Source: Anaeramoeba flamelloides
Taxonomy: Eukaryota > Metamonada > Anaeramoebidae
NCBI GenBank assembly: GCA_027625915.1
Contig: JANTQA010000072.1
Location: 1-64,000 of the forward strand
Direction of reading: 5' to 3'
DNA length: 64,000 nt
This document shows positions 21,403-59,406 of the stretch, piece by piece. Every line of letters begins with the position of its first letter. Position 1 is the first letter of the stretch. The notes under the pieces were generated by a model, which worked only from the letters and a program-made list of their open reading frames with translations, did no database searches and was not told the DNA's origin. A program made the translations under genes and the position numbers.

Positions 21403-23647
21403 TTAGTTTTCGTTTTGAGATTCGTTGGTTTCTTCTTTAGTTTTCATCCAATTTTTCTTATTTCGTTGTTCTAACAATAAAGTGATTGTGCGTTCATCTT
21501 TTGTGTCTCCGTGATATTGGATTGGACCACAGGCATAGTAATCGTCGTCCATTCTCCAAATTTGGCGGTATTTCAATAAGGTTTTGAAAGGAACACCTTC
21601 AAGGTCGACCAAAATTCTTTTTGCAACTGGGTTGAGACCCTTTTGGAATCCGTTTGATTTCATGAGGAACATTTCTGGGAAGGGCATTCCGAATGGGATC
21701 CATTCTTCAGTCTTTTTCCAGGTCCCGTTGACACCACACATCACGCCGGTGATGCCAGCCTCGATGAATCTACCTGCAGTGTTACCGAGAACGTAACAGT
21801 AATCACAATCAAAGTTTGAAGGGTAGCCGCATCTTCCCTCATAGCCAAAGAAATGGGTCATACAGTTGAAGTCCTTATAGCACCTTCTTTTCAATTCCTT
21901 TCTACAGGACCATTTCAGCAACTTGTCGGTGGCAATTTTACTGAGTGTGATGTCGCCACACCAATCTTTAGAATATAACAATTCACGGGCAATACCCTTT
22001 GGGAGGCTGCTATATAATTTTAAAGAGTTGCCTTTTAATTTCTCCAGCATTTCCTCTCTTGACCATCTTTCTTCTCGGTCTGGGTTTTCCTTAACGATTT
22101 GGTTACACTCGTTAATCAAAATACTAAATTCGGGAATAAATTCAATCAGTCCCTCTGGGATGATCAAGACACCGTGCTTTAATCCCTTTTTGCTTCTTTC
22201 CTCAATCAAATCACAAATGTCGCAAATGACATCATTTAATGTTTTGTTTTGCTTCTCAATCTCTTCACCAATTAAAACCATGTTAGGGTGGGTCTTAAGC
22301 GCACATTCTAATGCAACGTGACTTGCAGATCTTCCCATAACTTTAATGAAATGCCAATATTTTTCGGAACTCAGCGCATCAATCATAATATTACCAATTA
22401 GTTGACTGTAGACTTTGGTTGCAGTATCAAATCCTATAATTTGGAATTTTCATTTTTTCAAAAAAGAGTAGTTAGAATGAAATTTTAGAAGACGAAGAGA
22501 AAGAAAGATTTTTAGTTTGTGAAAATTTAGAAATTGTTTTGCTTTTTTGAAAATTTTGTTAATTTTCAGTTAAAGATAAATAATAAAAAAAAAAAAAAAA
22601 AATTAAATAAAAAATACAAACCAAATGAGGTTTCAATAAATCTATTTTTAATATCACCGTCAATAGTCTTTGGAATTCCAACAACTTGCACGTCTTGATT
22701 ATTTTGGCATAAGTATTCTGCCAATTCTGCAGCTCTTGTGTTTGAACCGTCACCACCGACAACAACGAGGGCATTCAGTCCTGAAGTTTTACAGAACTTT
22801 GAAAAGGCAGGTAAGGCAAGATCTGGATCAGTGTATTTACGGCCTGTTAAAATCATATTAAATCCACCAATGTTTCTGTATTGATCAATGATTTCGTCAT
22901 TCAAGACAATGTAACTTTCTTCGTATAAGCCAGTCATGGAATGGTAGATACCCCACACTTCAGAATTTTTGTTATGACTCTTAATAAGATCATAAAGTCC
23001 AACAATTACATTATGACCACCTGGGGCTGGTCCACCACTGAAAACAATTCCTACCTATAAATAATTATTTTAAATTTGAGGTATTGAGAAAAGAATTATT
23101 TTTAAAAAAAAAAAAAAGTAAAGGTTTAGATTCTTGAATTTATAATTAAAAAATTTTGTTTTTTGCAAATAAATATTGAAATATTGCCCTTGTATTTTGT
23201 AATTTATTTTTTTCGTTTTTGAAATCTGTTGGCTTGAGAAGCAACATAATTCCAATTTAAAAAAACAAATTTCGAAAAAAAAAAAAAAAACAAAAAACAA
23301 ATATTCAGTCTATTTTTGTTTCCAAAGGAGGTATATTAAAAATAAAAATATGAATAAAAACAAAAAAAAAGAAAGTAAAACAAGGTATTTACTTTAATTG
23401 CTTTGTGGTCAATTTTTTCAGATTTGTTTTTCTCAAATTTGAAAACTGGTCTTCCGTATAAATTTGGAAAAGCTTTTTTGACTTCGTCATCAATACCGCT
23501 TGATTTGGAGTTAACGCCAGAAGAAACAACATTAGTTTCAACAGTTAAAATCTTTGGAAGGTGAGTTTGGTATCGTAACCTTTGTGTTCGGATAAATCGT
23601 CTTTTAAAAGGTAAAATATTATTAGTATTTGATTTTGTGTTTAACAT
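21403..23647 (-). CDS. PFP: PPi-type 6-phosphofructokinase (long PFP clade) with an ATP-type switch residue
   Basis: Phosphorylates fructose 6-phosphate in glycolysis, with PPi or ATP as donor. Three exons: 23647-23393, 23054-22622, 22433-21403; introns of 338 and 188 nt (GTAAAT..TATAG, GTTTGT..TATAG) in phases 0 and 1; 572 residues, the size of long PPi-dependent enzymes. Visible motifs: SGGPAPGGHN at residue 91, GGDGSNTRA at 185-193, PKTIDGD at 213-219, GFDTATKVYSQLIGN, MGRSASH, GYEGRCGYP. PPi enzymes normally have GGDD; here the fourth residue is Gly188, as in ATP enzymes, while Lys214 of PKTIDGD is of the PPi type. The 26-residue spacing equals that of Asp175/Lys201 in the Entamoeba enzyme. 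The donor is therefore uncertain. The start is the only ATG before the conserved N-terminal segment. Confidence 0.93.
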
Positions 23648-37941: not shown

Positions 37942-38374
37942 TTAAAACTAATTAAAACAGATATAGAATCACTAAATTGATTTAACTTCAACAATATATG
38001 TTATTAAAACTAATAAAAATAATACATTGTGATAAAGAGGAAAATATTAATAAACATAAAATCTGAAACAATTTACGATAACACATGTTTACAATTAAAA
38101 ATTGAAATGTGAAAATAGAACATAATCTGATGAAAAAAATCCAGGAAAAGATTTTTTCTTGTGAATATTAGGAAAAATATTGTGTAATTACGAATATTCC
38201 AATCAAATCCATTTTACAAATAACCAAATTTATAAAGTCATACCTCACCCACTTATTAGAATGACGATTAATGGAATTACACTTTTTTAAAGCACTTTTC
38301 AATAAATCAAAAAACCCTAAGAATACAAATTATCATTTTCCAAACTCTATGAACCCTCTATCAAACCTCTCCAA

Positions 38375-38571
38375 GCAGTTCCACCTCAAAGAGACAAACT
38401 TTCAACAAAATTTATGGTGCAAAAAAATCTCAAACCAAGTCAAAAAATTCAGATTCTATTAAAATAATTTGTGTAAAAAAAAAAAAAAATTCCAAAAAAT
38501 GTGCATTTATTTAAGATTTTTTTACACCTTAAATTATGTTTATAGTCTGTGCCTTAAAAGCGGAACGGGCT
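38375..38571. mobile_element. Hairpin element P, decayed copy
   Basis: Left half CAGTTCCACCTCAAAGAGAC...; right half ...TTAAAAGCGGAACGGGCTG, its inverted partner. It is weaker than the copies at 39.86 and 61.70 kb. The short frame at 38271-38462 partly overlaps it and is not a gene. Confidence 0.5.
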
Positions 38572-38984
38572 GGAAAGTTTAGAAAAAAAAGTAAATCTGC
38601 TTATACTATCAAATAATTACTTGAGTATTCTATAGACACCTAGCTTTAATGAATTGTAGGTTGTTTTTTACTTGGTTCATACTAAATTTGGTTCTTTATA
38701 AAAAGGATTTGATTCAAAATATTTGTAATTTCACAACAATTTTCAAAATATTCACAATTAAAAATCTTGAAAGGTATTTTTTTCTTGTCTGCTATTTTTT
38801 TCACTGTTATACTTTATTTTAATTTAATTTTATATTTTGAATTAAATATTAATTCTAATAACCAATCGAATTTTTGACAAAATATTTTTGATTCCAAAAG
38901 GAACAAAAAATAAGAAAAAAAATATATATAAAAGAGATCAATTACTTAGGTTATATAATTAAACCGATTTGAAAATTCTTTAGA

Positions 38985-39858: not shown

Positions 39859-40050
39859 AACAGTTCCACTTTTAAGAAACAAATTTTAAACGAAATTTAA
39901 GGTACAAAAAAATCTCAAATTAAGGCACTTAATTCAGATTCTAGTAAAATAAATTGTAAAAAAAAATTGCACATTTTGTGTTTTAATTTGAGATTTTTTT
40001 GTACCTTAAATTTCGTTTAAAGTTTGTACCTTAAAAGTGGAACTGACTCT
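39859..40050. mobile_element. Hairpin element P, copy 2
   Basis: Inverted arms: CAGTTCCACTTTTAAGAAAC and AACGAAATTTAAGGTACAAA on the left match TTTGTACCTTAAATTTCGTT and CTTAAAAGTGGAACTGACTC on the right. Arms are about 85 bp with a ~20-bp centre. Confidence 0.7.
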
Positions 40051-40530
40051 ATAAAATAAATAGCTTGTTTTTTTTTTTTGTTTCTTTTAGAAGACCTATA
40101 TATTGACTCATCATTTTAAGAAACTGATAATAAACCCTAAATTGACAATACCCATATGTAGATATGGTATTGGTTTATAAAAGGTCTATTATTGTTTTTG
40201 AAATAGAAATTCTAAAAATTCAGTTTCAAATTTGAAACTTTTTATAAAAAAATAGAGATAAATCTATATAGCAAAATTTTTATAATCAAAAAACAATAAT
40301 TTCAGAAAAAATTGAGAAAATTTAAAAAAAATTGAACAAATTGCTTTCCTAATTTACATTTTTCTTATAAAATCAAGGAGTTTACACTAAAAATTGATTT
40401 GTGAGTGGCTATATTATTGGGTAGAGAATTGGGTGTTGCCTTGGAACAAAAAAAAAAAAAAAAAACAGATGGGTTATATTTGGAAACAGTGATAATAATC
40501 TTAGTGAAAGCATTATTTTGATAAATGTAA
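40051..40530 (+). mobile_element. Family E element, copy 2, ends eroded
   Basis: Landmarks in order: AGAAGACCTATATATTGAC, ATATGGTATTGGTTTA, ATTGGGTGTTGCCTTG, then GCATTATTTTGATAAATG at the end. The left terminus has merged with the hairpin element next to it. Confidence 0.6.
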
Positions 40531-40912
40531 ATGAATTATCACAGATTTTATAGCAATCAATACAATGTTTTTAAATCCTAAACTATATCATAATGAAAAA
40601 AGCAAATGATAATATTTTATAAAAAGGGAAAAGTTCATAGATAATTGGTGGAGAAATCTTAAATGTATTATGGTTTGAGAAATACTTCATCTGGAAGAAC
40701 TAGATAAATTAAAATTGAGTCTTTTGTCAACTTATTTGAAGATGAGAAAGCTTGATTAAAATACAAAGAAGAATATCGAGATAAGAAGGGAAAGATAAGA
40801 AGAGAAGGATAAATCAGATAAGGGCAAAGAAAAGGAAAACAATTTAAAAAGGGACGAGAAAAAATAAAAAAAAAGGATCAAAAGAAAAATTAAAAGAAAA
40901 AGAAATTTTAAA
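40531..40912 (+). pseudogene. Decayed fragment of an alpha-kinase gene like the one at 48.1 kb
   Basis: Colinear with 49876-50255 of the intact gene: ATTATCACAGATTTTA, then CAATCAATACAATG, CTTCATCTGGAAGAACTAGA, AATACAAAGAAGAATATCGA and a Lys-rich stretch. It covers the C-lobe active-site loop, the zinc-binding tail and the start of the Lys-rich linker. Frame is lost: several stops (for example TAG for AAA right after ATTTTA) and indels. It abuts a family E element on its left side. A second gene of this family once stood here. Confidence 0.8.
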
Positions 40913-46919: not shown

Positions 46920-47258
46920 TATTTTTCCCAGAAAGTTAACCTATTCAGCAATTAAGAAAACCCCATTCAACATAAAGTAAATTGGACCTTTTGTTTTTCA
47001 AATTCTTTGATTGTCGAAGAAAAAGCGGATTTGCCGTCTTGGATGAGGTTTTATTCGAATCAATTGCTTTTTGAAGGCACAGCCCCCTCACCCAGCAATG
47101 GAAATATTGATTATACCATTCAAATTGAATGCATTAATGATTGTGGTAAGAGCGCTAGTGAAACTTTCACTATCCATTTGGAAGAAGATCCAGATTTGTC
47201 TTGTGTTGATAGTGCAATTGAGTTAAAAAAGCAAATCCAAATACAAATTGCAGTCTAG
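46920..47258 (+). pseudogene. Relic of a dystroglycan-type cadherin-like (CADG) domain
   Basis: The frame reads ADLPSWMRFYSNQLLFEGTA..., then YTIQIECINDCGKSASETFT, matching the core of CADG repeats (LPSWL..F....F.G.P....Y.I.I...D..G.SAS..F). Upstream KLTYSAIKKTPFNIK, in another frame, is the preceding LTYSA strand; a 43-nt GTAAAT..CGAAG gap would join them, so either a micro-intron or a frameshift lies there. There is no start codon or other domain, and a transposon ends 36 bp upstream. Likely a stranded piece of a larger surface-protein gene. Confidence 0.55.
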
Positions 47259-48105
47259 GAATTTGAATTGCATTTCCAAATCCCAAATGATCACAAAAAA
47301 AGTAAAAAATTTCAAAATTTTCCACAAATCCATTTAAAAAAAATCAAGTTTGTGTGTTTTATCTCCTTTTTGTTATTCAGTCTTTTGCTGTTTAAATATC
47401 TGGAAAAATTAAAATATTTTTATTTTGTTTGAAAGTCTAAAGGCCAAGGAACAATTCAACACATATTTTCACAAAGCCATAGATGAGGTACAGTATGTCT
47501 CATATTTAACATTTTTTATTTTGGAAAAGGGAAAATATTGAAAAATGTGAGAAGTGTGCTTAACCAAACACTGAGTTTCATTTTTAAGACGCTTTACGAA
47601 ATTTATTAATTTATTTCGTAAACAATAAAGGATCAACACGGTTAATGTTCTCCTTTTTGGAGCAAAAGTTACAAATATAAACCAATAATTTTTAGAATTG
47701 GAATTTTCTCTAATTTTTCCAAAATACAACCAAAAAATTCTCTAAAATGACAAACAAAAATGTTAAAAAAGAAATTCATTAAAAAAATTGAATTCCAAAG
47801 AAGGTTTTTGACAGTTTTGAGTATTTACCTATTTTTTAAATCTTTATAATTATTTTGAACAGTAGAAAAAAAAATATGACATTCTTTGAAAATATTTTTT
47901 CTTAAAGTTTCCTTAACAATTCGAAAAGTTTGATCTTTTTCATTTCCAGACAATATCCATTTTTCATGCGAAATCTGGGAATATTAACACCCCAACCCAA
48001 AAAGAGAAAAAAATCCATCCCTCAATATAATTTAAAAACCATTTTTTGTTCATAAACAGCCATATTTTTTTAAAAATTGTTTTTTAAAATCCAACAAATC
48101 TTTTT
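47259..48105 (+). other. Intergenic and 5' flank of the VWA/alpha-kinase gene
   Basis: No gene or repeat recognised. The last ~150 bp before the start codon at 48106 contain a slightly C-richer stretch (CACCCCAACCC, ATCCATCCCTC) that may belong to the promoter or leader. Confidence 0.4.
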
Positions 48106-50759
48106 ATGTGGGAAAATTCGCTTGATTTAAATAATGTTCGGGAGGATTTACCGACTACAATTTCAAGAGAGTTTGACTCTGATAGCAACTCCTATTCAGA
48201 CGAGGACATTCTTTTCACATCTGACTCTGATCCTGACTCTGAAAGCGAGAACAAAAAAACAAAGAAACACCAGACAAGCAAGAAAGAGAAGCAAAAAAAA
48301 AAACAACTGCAGAAGGAGTATGTAAAAACAAAAAAGTCCAGCGATGTGATCACTGGCAAAGTGGTACCAACGGTATCAAGTTTAGATCGACGACAGATGA
48401 TTCTGGAGCAGAACAAATATGCGAACATTTGGAAAACAAAGCACAAGAGCTTGGGAGAGGAAATAAAAGCGACGACGAACCAGCTTCAATATAGTTTAGA
48501 TCTATGCTTTTTGGTTGACTGCACTGGATCTATGAAGCACGCTATTGACGAAGTCAAGAACAAGATCTTCAGTATCATTCGGCAGGTGAAGGATCAGATT
48601 AAGGGGCTGAAAACACGAATAGCGTTTCTCGGGTATACCGACATTGACTTTGCTGAAGAGGATCAATTCGAAATCTTGAATTTTGTTCCTGCTTACCATT
48701 ACAAAGACTTTACAACATTTTTAGGCAAAATCGATGCATGGGAGTTGGGCCTTGACGCTGCAGAAGATGTTATTGCCGGTATTGACAAAGTCAAAGAGTT
48801 GAATTGGAATTCGATGTCACGAATCTTGATCCACATCGGTGATGCCCCGCCACATGGCATGAAGTATCATCCAACCGAATATATAAGAAAGTATGGCAAA
48901 AATGATCGCTTTTATGACAAAGGGCAACCAATGATGCTTAATGAAGAAGAAATTGTGAAAAATTTAAGACTCAGGGGCATTGATTATTTTATTGGAGAAG
49001 TGCCCTTCAAACACTCCTCACTTCAATCTATGATTAAAGTTTTTCGAGAAAGCTATGATTCAGACTCACTCAATCCAAGAAAAATCGTGGACTTCAAAAT
49101 TGATTTAGATGATTCCCATTTTGTTAGGGATATACTAACTTCCATCGACAAAAGTAATTTAATTACAAAAAATTTGGTTGATAATATAAAGAAAGAAAAT
49201 TTTGATGGCGAGGAAGAGGAAGAGAAAAAGAAAGAGAAAAAAAAGGAGAAAAAAAAGGAGAAAAAAAAAGGAAAAGGAAAAGAAAAAGAAAACGATGATG
49301 AAGATTACTGGTATGAAGAAGAAGAAGTTGATATTATTCAGATCGACAAAACTGCTACTTTAAAAACTTTATTAAATTCCAAAAAAATACCAATCAAGAA
49401 ACAAGTAGGAAGAGTGAAAATTTCACGAAGGCCGATTGGGAGGGGAAATTACAATTTTGGATTCCATATGCTCGATTTAAAGGGCAACAAGCACATGGTT
49501 GGCAAGTTACTCGTCGAGCAGTCGGAAGAGAAAAAAATCAACAAAGAAAGGATCTTAAAGGAATTGGCGGTACACACAATAGCGTTCCAATTGTCTGAAT
49601 ATTATAATTCACAAAACCCAATTGAATTTATCGACTTGATTGAAACAAAGATCTACTTTTTTAAAAACCGAAACAAATACAATTATTTCTTGGCGCAGCC
49701 CTATTTATCTTTAATTACCCATTTAAAGCATTTCCATCTCCATAAAAAAAGCTCATTAAGGAAGCAGCGAAAGTTTTTGAGATGTATAAATGATAACGAT
49801 TGGAGATTTTCACACAAACGATGGGTGATCGCTCAAGCATTTACTCATTTAAGTTACCACCTATCTGATCAAAAATGGATTATCACAGATTTTAAAGGAA
49901 TCAATACAATGCTTTTAAACCCAAAGCTTTACAATAAGGGCAAAGACAAATGGTATGATTACGACGAAGGGGAAGAGGGCATCAACAATTGGATGAGGGA
50001 TCATAAATGCAATGTGGTTTGTAAAATGCTTCACCTGGAAGAACTAGACAAATCAAAATTGCCACCCTTGCCTGATTATTCGGGGATGAGAGAAAAACAT
50101 TACAATATAAAGAAGAATATCGAGAGAAGAAAAGAAAGGGAAAACGCGAAACGTAAAACAGATAAGGGTAAAGAAAAGAAAAAGGAAAGCAATTTAAAAA
50201 GAAACCCAAAAGATGCGAAAAACAAAATAAAGGATCAAAAGAAAAAGAAAGATGGGAATAAAACAAACACAAATCCTCGAAAAAGAAAAACAAAAGAAAA
50301 AAAATTAGATACAAAAAAAAAGAAAAAGACAAGCACCACAAGCAAAAGAAAAAAGAAAAAAAAAACAGACGATAAAAAGCATCCTACTTATAGAAACATG
50401 ATCCTTAGTACTCTGAAAAAAACAAAATCACAAAAAGGTTGGTCAAGACAAAAAATTTATGACATAATTAAAAACAAATATGAATTAGGAATCGGCCAAA
50501 ATTATCATTTAAGGTAACTATTTCATCCCCATTCAGTCGATCTTTTTGAAATAATTTGTAAATTTAACAACTTTTTTTTTCCTTTTTCGATGTTCTATTT
50601 CTCTATCCGAATAATAACAAAAATAATAATAGGTCTGCATTACAAAAACTTGTCCAGGAGGAAACAATAAAACAAACAAAACAGCACTTTACCTTAGCTG
50701 CAAATATACGCCAAGTTGCAAAAAAAAAAAGATATAACAAGACGAAAAAAAAAAACTAA
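48106..50759 (+). CDS. VWA domain / alpha-kinase / linker-histone H15 fusion protein
   Basis: Two exons, 48106-50513 and 50633-50759, split by a 119-nt intron (GTAACT..TAATAG, phase 2); 844 residues. Order: acidic Ser/Asp-rich N-terminus; von Willebrand A domain (~127-345) with MIDAS DCTGSM at 138-143, Asp179 in GYTD and Asp246 in IGDAPPHG; Glu/Lys linker; alpha-kinase (~430-650), as in Dictyostelium VwkA; Lys-rich tail; then an H15 winged helix (~758-830: HPTYRNMIL, KGWSRQKIYDIIKNKY, HLRSALQKLVQ), the globular fold of histone H1, completed only after splicing. ATP-site Lys467 (VGKLLV) and the HKCNVVC zinc motif (633-639) are present. The usual DxQG..TDPQIH loop reads DFKG..LNPKLY, so the second catalytic Asp is Asn605. 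It may act on chromatin or be a pseudokinase scaffold. Confidence 0.92.
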
Positions 50760-53737: not shown

Positions 53738-56700
53738 TTATTTTTTCATTCTAGGTTCAACGACCAAACTTCTTTGGTAAAGTTTTTTCGTATCATAGGC
53801 AACATTTATGTGCTGAGAAATAAAATTTTGAATAATTTCAACTTTTTGAAAATTGAAAGGTATGTGCTGAAATTGTTGTATAGTAGCGATTATTCTAGCC
53901 GTTTTTTGTCTTTTTTCAAAATTTATCAAGTTGGTATTAAAATTATTTTTGGATCCAACAGACTTCATGTTATTTGCGTTACCGTCATCGATGAAAACCA
54001 AGTCTGTTAAAAACATGCCGATATAGGGCAAAGCGGGTGGGTCTATTGTAGTTAGTATCTGGCGGATTACTTTGTAATTGGTTGCGCCTCTCATTAATTG
54101 GTTCAGATCGACCCAAATGTTTTTCAATTTGTTTGGCAATGCGTTCCAGGTTTGCTTTAATCTGAAAACCCCCGAACTGCTTAACCCAGCGATTATTTCT
54201 TGCACCGAATTAAAGTTGCCGATTTTTTTCAGATGGTAGCCGATTTTGATAAACTTGCCAAGGCAGTTCACTCTATTTTTTAATTTGTCGTGCGACAAAA
54301 TTTCGTTCGCCATCCAATTTGAGAATAGATTAAAAGACCTTGTAAAGTTGGTAATATTTGGCGCCAGCTCTTCTTTGTTTTTTTTCGTCCAAGCCTGGTT
54401 CAGAAATTCCCTGTGCTTAATTTTTTGATACAAATCAAATTCCATTAAGGTTAGTTGCCTGCTAAATTCCATTCCATTGATGTCGGTGAATGCAAGTTCC
54501 TGTTCATCTGGTAATAAACGGGGAATGATTGGCTTTGGAAGGCCTTTATTTAAGCTGTTTGTGCTTTTACTGATGGGCGAGGCCATTTGGCCATATTTCC
54601 TCGCGTTGGAAGCAAAAACGTAATTATTGTTTTTCAATTTATTCAGGACCCCCCTCAGCACGATTCCTGATTTCTTCATGAATGGGTCGTTTAAGATATC
54701 TTGCTCAATGAATGCCAATAATTCTTCGTCGAGCCCCGTGTTGGGCCCAAAGTCCGATGAATGGGTCCTCATCCACTGATTCAGGACATTGAAAACTTTA
54801 AACTTCACCGTGTTAATGATTTTATCTTTAAAAAGGCGCAATGCCTTGCCTTCCAAATTCTCTGGCGGCTTCATTAAAAACCTCTCTTTTAATAGCAGCA
54901 GCAATTCGGACCCCGTGGTAAAGGTCTGGTAAGTCAATAAAAAGGTGTTTAAATATAGGGGGTTTGATCCCTGTTCCGAGCACAAATATTCCACTAGCCA
55001 TTCCAGCGTGCCGCCAATGACGTTAATATTGGAGTTTGCGATCTTTTTGTTTCGGGTCTTTGTGTTGCTTGTGATCTCGTACCGTTCAATTATCGCAAAC
55101 CGTTCATCGATCTCAGAAAATTTTTTCAAAAAATCTTCTTCCTCTCGGATTTCATCGATCATGATCTGCTTATGATCCACAATTTTTTTCCTGAGATCCC
55201 CGTTGAGGCAATTCAATTGCAAAATTGCATCTTCATCAAAATTCTGATTCTTCTTGTTGGCTTTGTTATTACCGTTCCGCCTATTTTGGTTCACGATTTT
55301 TTGTTGGTTGCTTTCATTTCCGTTTTCGTTTGCATTTTCGTTTGTATTTGCATTTTCATTTTTTTCAAATAACAAATGAACAAATTTCATTTGAGTGATT
55401 TTTTCAATTTTTTTTGAACGTTTTAATAATTTCTCATTGGACAAGGGCTGCACCCCAATTAAAAATTTCTGTAATTGCTTGATTGGCGAGATGTCGAAAT
55501 ACACCGATTGTTGGAAATTTTTAATTTTTTTGATGACTTTCCCAATTTTGAGAAACTTGTTGATATTTAAGATCGATCGGTTGTTGTCGAAATAGCTTTT
55601 CTCTTGGTAGTCGATCAGGGAAATGTCGTAGAGCAATAAGTCGATTTGGGGGATGAATGGCAATTGGCTGCCTTCCAATATGGAGCGATATTTCCGGAAG
55701 TTGTTTTTCTTATTGGTAATTGTACGCAATTTGTCGAGCGCCCTTTTGGAATTGTTGGGTACGCTGGCCCATGTGGCGTCCAGCCGGGTGACGGGCAAGC
55801 TTTGCAGCGCAGACATGATGCAAAACAAATGCTGGTAATTATTCAATTTCATTAGGATTTGCGAGACCTCGAGCCATTTCGCAATTCTTGAAACCCGATT
55901 TGAAACTTTCGACTCGGAGAGAATTGTTGTGCAGATCCAGCCCGTTGTGCGTTGCAAGTAATTCAAATAATTGAATAGCTTTGGAAGGTTGCTTTGTAAA
56001 TTTTGCTCGTCGTCCCAATTTTGATACTTATTAAATTCCTTGAGGTCCAGCTCGTAAAATTGCTGCAGGGCATTCAGTGTCATCTGCGCAGCTATTACTT
56101 GCGAGGACAGATTTTGGAATTTGATTTTCCCTTGGTAGGAGTTGTTCCTGCTGTGCTTGTTCTTTTCAAAAAGGCTGCCATACGAGGCATACAGATCCCG
56201 CAGGGTACGCGACTTCACTTGCCTTTCGATGCAGATCTTCAGTTTCCTCGACACGCTCAAATTGATCGCGCCGATCCGGCTCTCCAGGAAGGGGTGCACA
56301 GTTTCTCGGATCCAATTGGAATTCTCATCGAAATCTTTTACCTGGTGTCGGGTCCATATCTGAAGCAACTTTAAAATACGATCTTGAATGATCGGCTTTT
56401 TGATTTTTTTAAACAAGTAATTAAAATTCGACTTTGCGATTTCAAAGTCAAAGTATTTGACAAAGTACCCAAACAATTCGTACTTGCTCATAAAGCTCTC
56501 GTAAACCAATAAAAAGACTGAAAACATTTCCAAATCTAGGCTTTCATTTGTTAAAAAATGATATATAATACTTTCATTGCTGCCCTTGGAGACGCATGGG
56601 ACACCTTTCTTTTGGTAATGTAATGTAATGTCGGTTCCATTGTTTTGAAAATATCGCTGCTCATTCAAATTGTCACGCAGGGCCTTCGTGGGCCTTTTAA

Positions 56701-57313
56701 GCAAATCGTTAATGGTAATGTTCGAATATTTGCTTTGGCTTTGGTGCGAAATTTGCTTGTTTTCAAACCTTTTTCTCGTGTGGTACCTCTGCTTTTGTTT
56801 CGAGATCGTAAAAATGGAAATTGGCAAGTTTGTTGGCTCGTTGGTTTTTAAAGAGATTTTTAATTTGGATAATGATTTTTTTATTTTTTTCACAGAATTT
56901 GCATTATTATTGAGATTGTTATTTATTTTCCTTTCGTTTGTTGTGTTGATGTTTGCGTTTATATTTGAAGTTAGGTTTATGGTTTTGTTTTTATTGCTCT
57001 TGATAAGATCATCAATTTCAAATTTTGGATTTGAAATTGTCTTTTTGTTCAGATCAGTGTTTAGGCAGATGTTTGTGCTTGTGCTTTTGCTTCTATTGAG
57101 TGTTTGGCTTATAAAGGAATCAATGTTGAAGCTACTTTTCGATTTTCTAAATGTGCTTGTGATTTTGGTTTTTGAGGATTTGAATTCCTCCAAAACATCC
57201 AAATAGGATCGTGGTTTTGTTCGTTTGTTTTCTTTTTCCTGGAAATTGCTAAAATTAGTACTTTTCGTTAATCTTTCAAGTTGTTCATCAAGTAAATCAC
57301 TTAAGTCACTCAT
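53738..57313 (-). CDS. Tandem Ras guanine-nucleotide exchange factor (two RasGEF-N + CDC25 modules)
   Basis: Single exon, 1191 residues, ATG at 57313. It would load GTP onto Ras-family GTPases. Order: basic, Ser/Asn-rich N-terminus (1-~215); RasGEF-N 1 (~235-345); CDC25-type RasGEF 1 (~400-640); a NENANTNENANENGN linker (652-667) and a coiled stretch; RasGEF-N 2 (~762-885: GGTLEWLVEYL, FLLTYQTF); RasGEF 2 (~940-1178: SRQLTLMEFDLYQKI, RELN-like IGNFNSVQEIIAGL, PPALPYIGMFLTDLVFIDDG, LINFEKR). The second catalytic domain has all family landmarks. The first is diverged: it has LPFIPQIDLLLYDISLIDYQ and lacks the LINFEKR helix, so it may be regulatory or specific for a different GTPase. Many plus-strand frames over this gene are shadows. 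Confidence 0.95.
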   Translation of the reverse strand: MSDLSDLLDEQLERLTKSTNFSNFQEKENKRTKPRSYLDVLEEFKSSKTKITSTFRKSKSSFNIDSFISQTLNRSKSTSTNICLNTDLNKKTISNPKFEIDDLIKSNKNKTINLTSNINANINTTNERKINNNLNNNANSVKKIKKSLSKLKISLKTNEPTNLPISIFTISKQKQRYHTRKRFENKQISHQSQSKYSNITINDLLKRPTKALRDNLNEQRYFQNNGTDITLHYQKKGVPCVSKGSNESIIYHFLTNESLDLEMFSVFLLVYESFMSKYELFGYFVKYFDFEIAKSNFNYLFKKIKKPIIQDRILKLLQIWTRHQVKDFDENSNWIRETVHPFLESRIGAINLSVSRKLKICIERQVKSRTLRDLYASYGSLFEKNKHSRNNSYQGKIKFQNLSSQVIAAQMTLNALQQFYELDLKEFNKYQNWDDEQNLQSNLPKLFNYLNYLQRTTGWICTTILSESKVSNRVSRIAKWLEVSQILMKLNNYQHLFCIMSALQSLPVTRLDATWASVPNNSKRALDKLRTITNKKNNFRKYRSILEGSQLPFIPQIDLLLYDISLIDYQEKSYFDNNRSILNINKFLKIGKVIKKIKNFQQSVYFDISPIKQLQKFLIGVQPLSNEKLLKRSKKIEKITQMKFVHLLFEKNENANTNENANENGNESNQQKIVNQNRRNGNNKANKKNQNFDEDAILQLNCLNGDLRKKIVDHKQIMIDEIREEEDFLKKFSEIDERFAIIERYEITSNTKTRNKKIANSNINVIGGTLEWLVEYLCSEQGSNPLYLNTFLLTYQTFTTGSELLLLLKERFLMKPPENLEGKALRLFKDKIINTVKFKVFNVLNQWMRTHSSDFGPNTGLDEELLAFIEQDILNDPFMKKSGIVLRGVLNKLKNNNYVFASNARKYGQMASPISKSTNSLNKGLPKPIIPRLLPDEQELAFTDINGMEFSRQLTLMEFDLYQKIKHREFLNQAWTKKNKEELAPNITNFTRSFNLFSNWMANEILSHDKLKNRVNCLGKFIKIGYHLKKIGNFNSVQEIIAGLSSSGVFRLKQTWNALPNKLKNIWVDLNQLMRGATNYKVIRQILTTIDPPALPYIGMFLTDLVFIDDGNANNMKSVGSKNNFNTNLINFEKRQKTARIIATIQQFQHIPFNFQKVEIIQNFISQHINVAYDTKKLYQRSLVVEPRMKK

Positions 57314-59406
57314 TTTAAAAGAGTTGAGAAAAAGTGCGTTCTTTAAAGTGTTTTAAAAGTTATATTTTTAGGTTTTATAGTTTTAAAAAAAATAAAAATG
57401 AAAAATTTTTATTAGTGTAATTTTTTTAAAAAATTCTCTTTGAAAAAGGTTCAACTTTGAGGTTTGTGTACTCAGAGGTTAATTTGAAATTCTGGATTAA
57501 ATTATTTTTCGATTTGTTGTGTCATCAAATGTAAAATTGAGAAGATTTTTTTTTTTTTTTATTGAAGAATGTGAAATATCGAACGTTTGCTGTTTCGTTT
57601 TTTTATGTTCTTTTTAAAATCAAAAATGTTTTTATTGTTTTCACTTGGATTTTCAAAATTAAAAATTAAAAATTAAATTCTATTCCAGCCTCAGTGACTT
57701 TTTGAAATTCATATAATTAACCAATGATACAAAACAGTTGGTTTTTGGAAAATTTCTCTTTTGTATTTTGAACTTTTTTAAATATTTTACCTTTTTTGAT
57801 CTTTTATTAATTAAAAAAGACAATTCTGTAAAATTTTACCAACATACATTTCTCTTTGTATTTTATTCTTTTCGACAAACAAATATGTGAACCAAGTTTA
57901 CTTTATGTATATTTTTTGAAATAGTAATATACAATAAAGATATTTAGTTGACGTATTTTAGAATTCAATAAAAGGTTTTGGCAAAAACTGTTTGAAAAAA
58001 AAAGGGTCTTTTGTTAATTAAAAAAAATAGAATTTCATCCACTTATCAAACTCGTCTTGAAAAAAACATTCAGAGGTATTCTTACAATTCAATAACAAAA
58101 ACTTTTCAACAAGATATTTTTTTTCATCTGATGAGTTCATTGTTTTGGAAGTTGTTTTTTGATAACTCGAAATATTTTGGTTCAGAACAAGAGATTCATT
58201 TGAGATTAGATTGAGAACATTAAAAATTAAAACTAAAGATTTCTGTTGACAGAAAAGTAGAATTTTGCTTAGTTATTATTCTTATTCCTATTGAGAAATT
58301 ATTTTGTGATTAGCCAACAAGTGGCTCTTAATTCAAAAAAATGTTTTCTCATTTTTCACTCAAGTCCACTTTTTCAATTTTTTTCACTTGTTTTGCTTTG
58401 GATATGAATTTTATTTCTAAAATTCTCAAAAACTTTGTCAAAATGTTGATTTTCGATAGACAGTTCAAAAAAAATGAAAAGTAAGTTGTTGTAATGATTT
58501 TTAAAAGAAAATGGTGAACTATAAATTTTTTACTTTATTTTAAAAAATATAGTTTCTGTTGAATAAATGTATAGAAAGACACAATTTGCTTTGATCGATC
58601 AATAGGTATTTGTAGTTTTTTAATTGGACACTTCAAGTTTATTTTTTTAAACAATTCGTAAAAATTTTACCATTTTAAAAAAACATTTTGCTGTTTTTTA
58701 AAAATTGAAATTTTATCAGATTATACTTCAGAATTAATAAATAGTTTAAAGTGTTAACATTTACCGTAAAGAAGTGTTGTTTTTTCACTCTTATTTGATG
58801 GAAAACACACTTTTTTTTTTTGTTTTTATTAAATATTTATGTAATCAATAAAAGTTCAAAAAAAGAAAAAGGTTTGAAGAATTTATATTTAAATTTTAGG
58901 TGGATTGTATCTGACTTTTTCATTTAAAAAAAGCTTTTTAAAAAAACCCAAAATTGAAAATTCATTTTTAAAAATTCTTCAAATTTCTATAAAAAAAATG
59001 TAAATTTTATTTGTATCAATTTACAAATTCATCGTTGGAAGTTGTTTAAAATTTTATATTTAATAAAAACTTTCTCCTGACTTCAATTTGCCACCCTTAT
59101 TTAATAAGATTTGAAAATAATTAATTTTCTCTCAAAAAACAGAGAAAGAAGAGTAAAATTAATATGGGTAAACTTTTGTTTTTCTTTGATTTATTGAGAT
59201 GTTTGGTTTTTTGGTTCAAATCAGGTTAGGTTATACTACAACCATCCCAAATACACTACAAAATAATTTCTAGATCAACTTTAATGCAAGTATTATCCTT
59301 CAATTTCTATATATTCAACTTTTTAAAAACCTGTACTAAAGATCAAAATTTGATTTTGATAAAAATTTACAATCGCGCTTAAAAGACAATTTTTTGGAAA
59401 TTAAAA

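What the first reader, a model, noticed from the sequence alone, without database searches (positions are those of the whole stretch)
48106..50759. VWA + alpha-kinase + linker-histone H15 fusion
The VWA/alpha-kinase pairing is known from Dictyostelium VwkA. Here a Lys-rich tail leads to a clear H15 winged helix (HPTYRNMIL, KGWSRQKIYDIIKNKY, SALQKLVQ) that is only complete after removing the intron at 50514-50632. A DNA/nucleosome-binding module on an atypical kinase with a metal-site VWA domain would be a chromatin-targeted kinase or scaffold. I know of no described protein with this order.
Basis: partly seen in the sequence, partly recalled or inferred. Interest (0 to 1): 0.82.

Follow-up and report, generated by a model that had tools for sequence, protein, structure and literature searches.

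The report
VWA, dead-kinase and linker-histone fusion
A gene in an AT-rich eukaryotic sequence joins a VWA-like domain, an alpha-kinase-like domain that lacks key catalytic residues, and a linker-histone (H1-type) DNA-binding domain, which suggests a chromatin-bound scaffold rather than an active kinase.

Summary
The gene model holds: 48106-50513 + 50633-50759, 844 aa, with the best of 30 possible GT-AG splice pairs. Pfam finds an alpha-kinase domain (E 1e-19) and a linker-histone domain (E 3e-14), the latter in 0 of 9 shuffled or reversed controls. The VWA call is weaker: only ~35 residues match, at 22.1-27.2 bits against a cut-off of 27, but metal-site residues are present. So this is most likely a pseudokinase scaffold or sensor held on chromatin by a Lys-rich arm plus H15, not a chromatin-targeted kinase. 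A broken paralogue about 7 kb upstream (40529-40905, 7 stops) carries the same Asn. ALPK3 is a precedent for an alpha-pseudokinase at the nuclear envelope. My searches found no alpha-kinase + H15 protein, but PDB aside they held no eukaryotic genomes or proteomes. Nuclear location, DNA binding, splicing and inactivity are inferred.

The parts
48106..50513 (+). Exon 1 of the gene (ATG to split codon R803)
   Evidence: Open frame 48088-50517; translation
50514..50632 (+). 119-nt GT-AG intron (75.6% AT) inside the H15 domain
   Evidence: Best of 30 GT-AG pairs; raises the Pfam H15 score from 38.0 to 56.5 bits
50633..50759 (+). Exon 2: second half of H15, basic tail, stop
48496..49125 (+). VWA-like domain with MIDAS-type motif D138xT140xS142, T178, D246
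   Evidence: VWA_4 22.1-27.2 bits against cut-off 27, first ~35 residues only; residues; limits are my estimate
49444..50022 (+). Alpha-kinase-fold domain, predicted pseudokinase (K467 and D595 kept; Q758 to K597, D766 to N605; zinc residues H581, H633, C635, C639 kept)
   Evidence: Pfam; alignment to MHCK-A chains; positions
49918..49920 (+). AAC codon, Asn605, at the place of the catalytic Asp766 of MHCK-A
   Evidence: the chain of 3LMI (D766A) shows Ala in that same column
50116..50376 (+). Lys-rich arm, residues 671-757 (43 K/R of 87)
50380..50681 (+). Linker-histone H15 winged helix, residues 759-819, interrupted by the intron
   Evidence: PF00538 E 3e-14; histone H5/H1.0 chains, best E 3.6e-8
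40529..40905 (+). Truncated, broken paralogue relic (kinase C-lobe and start of Lys-rich arm), 7 in-frame stops, Asn kept at the 605 position
   Evidence: 281 of 384 DNA columns identical, E 6e-66; tblastn

Best explanation
A nuclear scaffold or sensor protein. The Lys-rich arm and the H15 winged helix hold it on linker DNA or nucleosomes (inferred from homology). The VWA-like domain binds a protein partner through a divalent metal (inferred from the MIDAS residues). The alpha-kinase fold between them is a pseudokinase: it keeps the zinc-site residues of its C-lobe and the probable nucleotide-contacting lysine but lacks the catalytic aspartate and the DxQ glutamine (shown at sequence level). 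So it probably serves as a docking or nucleotide-gated switch module rather than a phosphotransferase (inferred).
For: Alpha_kinase and Linker_histone above Pfam cut-offs on one spliced product, with 0 of 9 scrambled H15 controls hitting. The N-lobe fragment alone is recognised as alpha-kinase, 22.9 bits against 21.3. D766 to N605 and Q758 to K597 in a segment aligned to MHCK-A at E 1.4e-10. D766 is called invariant and catalytically essential in PMC4876393 (passages), and D284A, the eEF2K equivalent, loses catalytic activity (PMC12509998, passage). The relic paralogue also has Asn there. ALPK3, with Ala1776 two residues after its predicted catalytic Asp1774, was concluded to be a pseudokinase, found at the nuclear envelope and sarcomere (PMC9698156, passages and section 27). 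The Lys-rich arm beside H15 has 43 K/R in 87 residues.
Against: No expression, location or binding data. Asp to Asn is a mild change, and divergent kinases can stay active without standard motifs (WNG kinases, PMC6442604, seen only in the listing). The N-lobe residue mapping (R592 to N450, K645 to K467) is weak, and a middle fragment of the domain scores under the Pfam cut-off (15.5 of 21.3 bits). Recalled DNA-contact positions of H5 are only partly kept. Structure models were too poor to use (pLDDT 38 and 41). I have no orthologue to show that the fusion is conserved.
Confidence: 0.58

Rival explanations
1. An active chromatin-targeted alpha-kinase: H15 brings a working kinase to chromatin, where it phosphorylates histones, as reported for cleaved TRPM7 kinase.
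For: The domain scores well above the Pfam cut-off; Lys467 and Asp595 are kept; PMC4876393 (introduction) says that cleaved TRPM7 kinase can enter the nucleus and phosphorylate histones.
Against: Catalytic Asp766 is Asn605 and the DxQ Gln is Lys597; in eEF2K the Asp-to-Ala change loses activity.
Confidence: 0.13
2. A VwkA-like protein whose basic C-terminus is not nuclear: the H15 and Lys-rich arm bind acidic membranes, RNA or cytoskeleton at vacuoles, as VwkA acts at the contractile vacuole.
For: VWA then alpha-kinase is the VwkA order (PMC1420674, passages); VwkA localises to contractile vacuoles (PMC4083560, passages).
Against: VwkA is not described with an H15 in the passages I read; H15 domains of known function bind DNA or nucleosomes (recalled).
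Confidence: 0.12
3. The gene model is partly wrong or the locus is decaying: the intron is retained, giving a product that ends after R803 with half an H15, or the gene is a young pseudogene like its relic neighbour.
For: A broken paralogue lies about 7 kb away; live-versus-relic substitutions show no significant synonymous excess (13 synonymous codons against 10.1 expected, P 0.18); a stop follows R803 if unspliced.
Against: An open exon 1 of 802 codons that holds the VWA-like and kinase domains and half of H15, and one splice pair that restores the H15 far better than the 29 others.
Confidence: 0.12
4. Assembly chimera or sequencing error joined a kinase gene to an H1 gene through the A-rich Lys-coding stretch.
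For: The join lies in A-rich tracts, which are prone to error; no reads were available.
Against: The frame stays open through 87 Lys-rich codons; the relic copy carries the same kinase to Lys-rich junction (alignment runs to residue 715), although it stops before H15.
Confidence: 0.05

Closest known systems
VwkA of Dictyostelium (VWA + alpha-kinase)
   Same: A VWA-type domain upstream of an alpha-kinase domain (PMC1420674, passages)
   Different: VwkA shows autophosphorylation enhanced by calmodulin (PMC7079120, passages) and localises to contractile vacuoles; here the catalytic Asp is Asn and a Lys-rich arm plus H15 follows. No VwkA sequence was compared here.
MHCK-A alpha-kinase domain
   Same: Best solved relative by sequence; QAFxHxxYxLS-type and HKCNxVC motifs kept
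   Different: D766 to N605, Q758 to K597, possibly R592 to N450; MHCK-A has a coiled coil and WD repeats instead of VWA and H15
ALPK3, alpha-pseudokinase of vertebrate muscle
   Same: Alpha-kinase fold with losses at active-site positions, concluded inactive, found at the nuclear envelope (PMC9698156)
   Different: Muscle M-band protein; no H15 described in the parts I read; its predicted catalytic Asp1774 is kept
Histone H5 / H1.0 globular domain
   Same: HPTY...SRQxI...IKxxY...KQTK, best E 3.6e-8
   Different: C-terminal module of a large protein; Lys-rich arm lies before, not after, the winged helix; by eye a shorter wing; some recalled DNA-contact residues changed
Plant TRB (Myb-H15) and MOZ/MORF-type proteins (recalled)
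   Same: H15 used as a module in a larger chromatin protein
   Different: Different partners (Myb, acetyltransferase); not searched here

Membership tests
Alpha-kinase family (catalytic) | Alpha-kinase fold (PF02816) | tested here: met
   71.7 bits, cut-off 21.3, profile 6-185 of 185
Alpha-kinase family (catalytic) | Invariant catalytic Asp (MHCK-A Asp766) | tested here: not met
   Asn605 in an aligned column fixed by the D766A chain 3LMI
Alpha-kinase family (catalytic) | Gln of the DxQ motif (Q758; number recalled) | tested here: not met
   D595-F596-K597
Alpha-kinase family (catalytic) | Invariant ATP-site Lys (Lys645) and P-loop Arg592 | tested here: inconclusive
   Lys467 is a likely match (it also aligns with a Lys of PLK2 in a hit at E 0.11); Arg592 falls on Asn450 in a non-significant segment
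Alpha-kinase family (catalytic) | Zinc site His-His-Cys-Cys of the C-lobe | tested here: met
   H581, H633, C635, C639; ligand identity recalled
VwkA-like VWA-alpha-kinases | VWA domain N-terminal to the alpha-kinase | tested here: inconclusive
   MIDAS residues present; VWA_4 22.1-27.2 bits against 27, first ~35 residues only; fold model unusable
VwkA-like VWA-alpha-kinases | Calmodulin-stimulated autophosphorylation | not testable with these tools
   Described for VwkA in PMC7079120
Linker histone H1/H5 (H15 domain) | Globular winged-helix domain PF00538 | tested here: met
   53.4 bits, cut-off 22.4; H5/H1.0 solved chains; 0 of 9 scrambled controls
Linker histone H1/H5 (H15 domain) | Small protein with the Lys-rich tail C-terminal of the globular domain (recalled) | tested here: not met
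   844-aa protein; Lys-rich arm before H15, 25-residue tail after it
Alpha-pseudokinases (ALPK3-like) | Loss of phosphotransfer activity | not testable with these tools
   Inferred from the residue losses only

The most novel reading that the evidence does not exclude
A chromatin reader or scaffold made by fusing a VWA-alpha-pseudokinase to a linker-histone domain: an H1-like protein whose residence on nucleosomes is controlled by a metal-dependent VWA partner and a nucleotide-sensing dead kinase, a combination that I found nowhere in the searches I could run.
Probability: 0.33. Interest if true: 0.72.

Novelty: new variant of a known kind. Interest (0 to 1): 0.5.

Why it matters
If right, it shows a linker-histone domain recruited to aim an atypical pseudokinase at chromatin. 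That joins two families that my searches did not show joined, and adds a likely further case to the alpha-pseudokinases, of which ALPK3 was called the first (PMC9698156). It makes a testable claim: an H1-type module can carry non-histone signalling folds.

Tried and rejected
Relatives: viral contigs (VWA+kinase, H15, and a two-row C-lobe alignment), genome contigs (C-lobe alignment) and phages by tblastn with the kinase part gave none. These are viral and prokaryotic collections, so the misses say nothing about eukaryotes. No whole genome is held for the window. PF02816 in the 14 control genomes rang in 0, which the tool itself says does not show absence.

Structure: single-sequence AlphaFold2 models of residues 110-669 and of residues 125-345 (VWA part) had pLDDT 38 and 41. 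A Foldseek search of the second gave 0 matches at E <= 0.001; of 832 matches at E <= 10 the 50 listed were led by glycosyltransferases, with two integrin rows and one ANTXR2-complex row at E 0.27-0.40. I use none of it. PDB sequence search of the VWA part found only a flagellin chain at E 0.067. NCBIfam found nothing for the VWA or kinase parts. The H15 segment also drew sub-threshold matches to DUF4145 (E 0.024) and, for its first half, Forkhead (E 0.012).

Codon-level test of constraint between the live gene and the relic was not significant. Organism: I take it for an AT-rich eukaryote from GT-AG introns (this gene and a PFK gene) and a RasGEF gene. I considered Anaeramoeba (AT-rich, GT-AG introns; PMC11550330, passages and section 10) but could not test it.

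Papers: 'alpha-kinase' + 'linker histone' gave 2 papers and 'alpha kinase' + 'linker histone' gave 7, none about a fusion by title and abstract start. 'H15 domain' + 'linker histone' + 'fusion' + 'kinase' gave 2, neither relevant by the same reading. A four-term protist search gave 0. The VwkA discovery paper is not held. Passages of PMC3218828 added nothing.

Full report
The observation. Exon 1 (48106-50513) and exon 2 (50633-50759) join to an 844-residue product with a split Arg codon at 803. Pfam recognises an alpha-kinase domain at 450-639 (71.7 bits, cut-off 21.3) and a linker-histone domain at 759-819 (53.4 bits, cut-off 22.4). The VWA domain is less secure. PF25106 matches only the first ~35 residues, at 22.1 bits in the whole protein and 25.3, 27.2, 26.3 and 25.4 bits in four cut-outs (cut-off 27). 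PF00092 stays under its cut-off (15.5-17 against 23.8). The residues of a MIDAS-type metal site are present: D138, T140, S142, T178, D246 (motif recalled). I accept a VWA-like domain with that reserve.

The intron. Exon 1 alone carries half of H15 (38.0 bits), the spliced 91-aa segment scores 56.5 bits, and the exon-2 piece alone hits nothing. Among 30 GT-AG pairs around the site, 50514-50632 aligned best to the H5/H1.0 globular domain (score 122, next 94, unspliced 92). Eight shuffled copies and one reversed copy of the segment gave 0 of 9 linker-histone hits at E <= 1. Solved histone H5 and H1.0 chains are the nearest by sequence (E 3.6e-8 and 5.7e-8). The PFK gene at 21403-23054 on the minus strand has a 188-nt GT-AG intron that ends in ATAG, as this one does. 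No RNA was available.

The C-lobe aligns with MHCK-A at E 1.4e-10. In the wild-type chain the motif reads DIQG-x5-TDPQ, and here it reads DFKG-x5-LNPK. The chain of 3LMI, a D766A form (PMC9921739, passage), shows Ala in the same column, so the column is fixed: Asp766 corresponds to Asn605 (codon AAC at 49918). PMC4876393 (outline and passages) calls this Asp invariant and catalytic, and finds it phosphorylated in crystals. In eEF2K the equivalent D284A loses catalytic activity (PMC12509998, passage). The Gln of the DxQ motif is Lys597. The Asn in the GNLG stretch of MHCK-A aligns with Asp (alignment; its role in the N/D-loop is recalled). In the N-lobe, Arg592 falls on Asn450, but that segment aligns with a negative score and is weak. 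The N-lobe fragment alone passes the Pfam cut-off (22.9 bits), while a middle fragment does not (15.5 bits). Kept are Lys467, the probable ATP-site lysine; Asp595; and the zinc residues H581, H633, C635 and C639. A zinc-held fold with a lost catalytic Asp is what a pseudokinase looks like. This is inference from sequence; Asn can in principle work poorly rather than not at all.

A broken relative next door. At 40529-40905, same strand, 281 of 384 aligned DNA columns (73%) match the kinase C-lobe and the start of the Lys-rich arm (E 6e-66). It has 7 in-frame stops, and I found no VWA, N-lobe or H15 part beside it. It has Asn (AAT) at the 605 position and Ile at the 597 position. The simplest reading is that the Asn is older than this duplication. 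The kinase to Lys-rich-arm junction is thus present in two copies. Over the 306 ungapped columns compared, substitutions lean to G>A and C>T (32 of 78), as in decay; the synonymous excess is not significant (13 against 10.1, P 0.18), so this pair does not show constraint on the live gene.

How it most likely works. The C-terminal module is a Lys-rich arm (43 K/R in 87 residues) followed by H15. By recalled H5 numbering laid on the alignments, the DNA-contact positions keep H25, K40, R47, K69 (as Arg) and K85, while R42, K52, R73 and, by eye beyond the aligned part, R94 are not basic. So binding to DNA or nucleosomes is likely but may differ from H5. The VWA end would hold a partner through a metal ion. 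The dead kinase would be a docking or nucleotide-sensing module. ALPK3 gives precedent: it has Ala1776 two residues after its predicted catalytic Asp1774, phosphoproteomics failed to detect activity, and it sits at the nuclear envelope and sarcomere (PMC9698156, passages and section 27). Cleaved TRPM7 kinase entering the nucleus (PMC4876393, introduction) gives precedent for the active-kinase rival.

Known and new. VWA followed by alpha-kinase is the VwkA order (PMC1420674, passages). Alpha-kinases with other modules (WD40, ArfGAP, SH3) are described (PMC4192601 and PMC1420674, passages). I found no alpha-kinase with H15, but my literature searches cover open-access papers only and my relative searches covered viruses, phages and prokaryotes, not eukaryotes. 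The claim of a unique architecture is therefore open. I rate it a new variant of a known kind: a VwkA-type protein that lost catalytic residues and gained a linker-histone module. It is one gene in one unnamed sequence, with no orthologue and no expression data, which holds the score at 0.5.

Noticed in passing
39861-40045 and 38361-38583: Two related inverted repeats of about 185 and 223 nt (arms 73-74 nt, 90% and 74% complementary), like a MITE family, just upstream of the kinase relic. A scan for an 18-base piece of the arm found 5 places against 2.3 expected, 4 of them in these repeats.
   Followed up: partly
40529-40905: Truncated, broken paralogue of the kinase C-lobe and Lys-rich arm, which suggests that this gene family duplicates locally.
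   Followed up: yes
53738-57352, minus strand: A 1204-aa open frame with two RasGEF stretches and two RasGEF_N stretches in one protein.
   Followed up: no
21403-23054, minus strand: Phosphofructokinase gene pieces joined by a 188-nt GT-AG intron. It reads GGDGS in one motif and PKTIDGD in the next; from memory, features of ATP and PPi types are mixed.
   Followed up: partly
420-1616: MBOAT-family acyltransferase open frame.
   Followed up: no
46956-47258: 100-aa open frame with a near-threshold Ig-like (He_PIG) match (22.6 bits against 24), possibly the last exon of the upstream gene.
   Followed up: no
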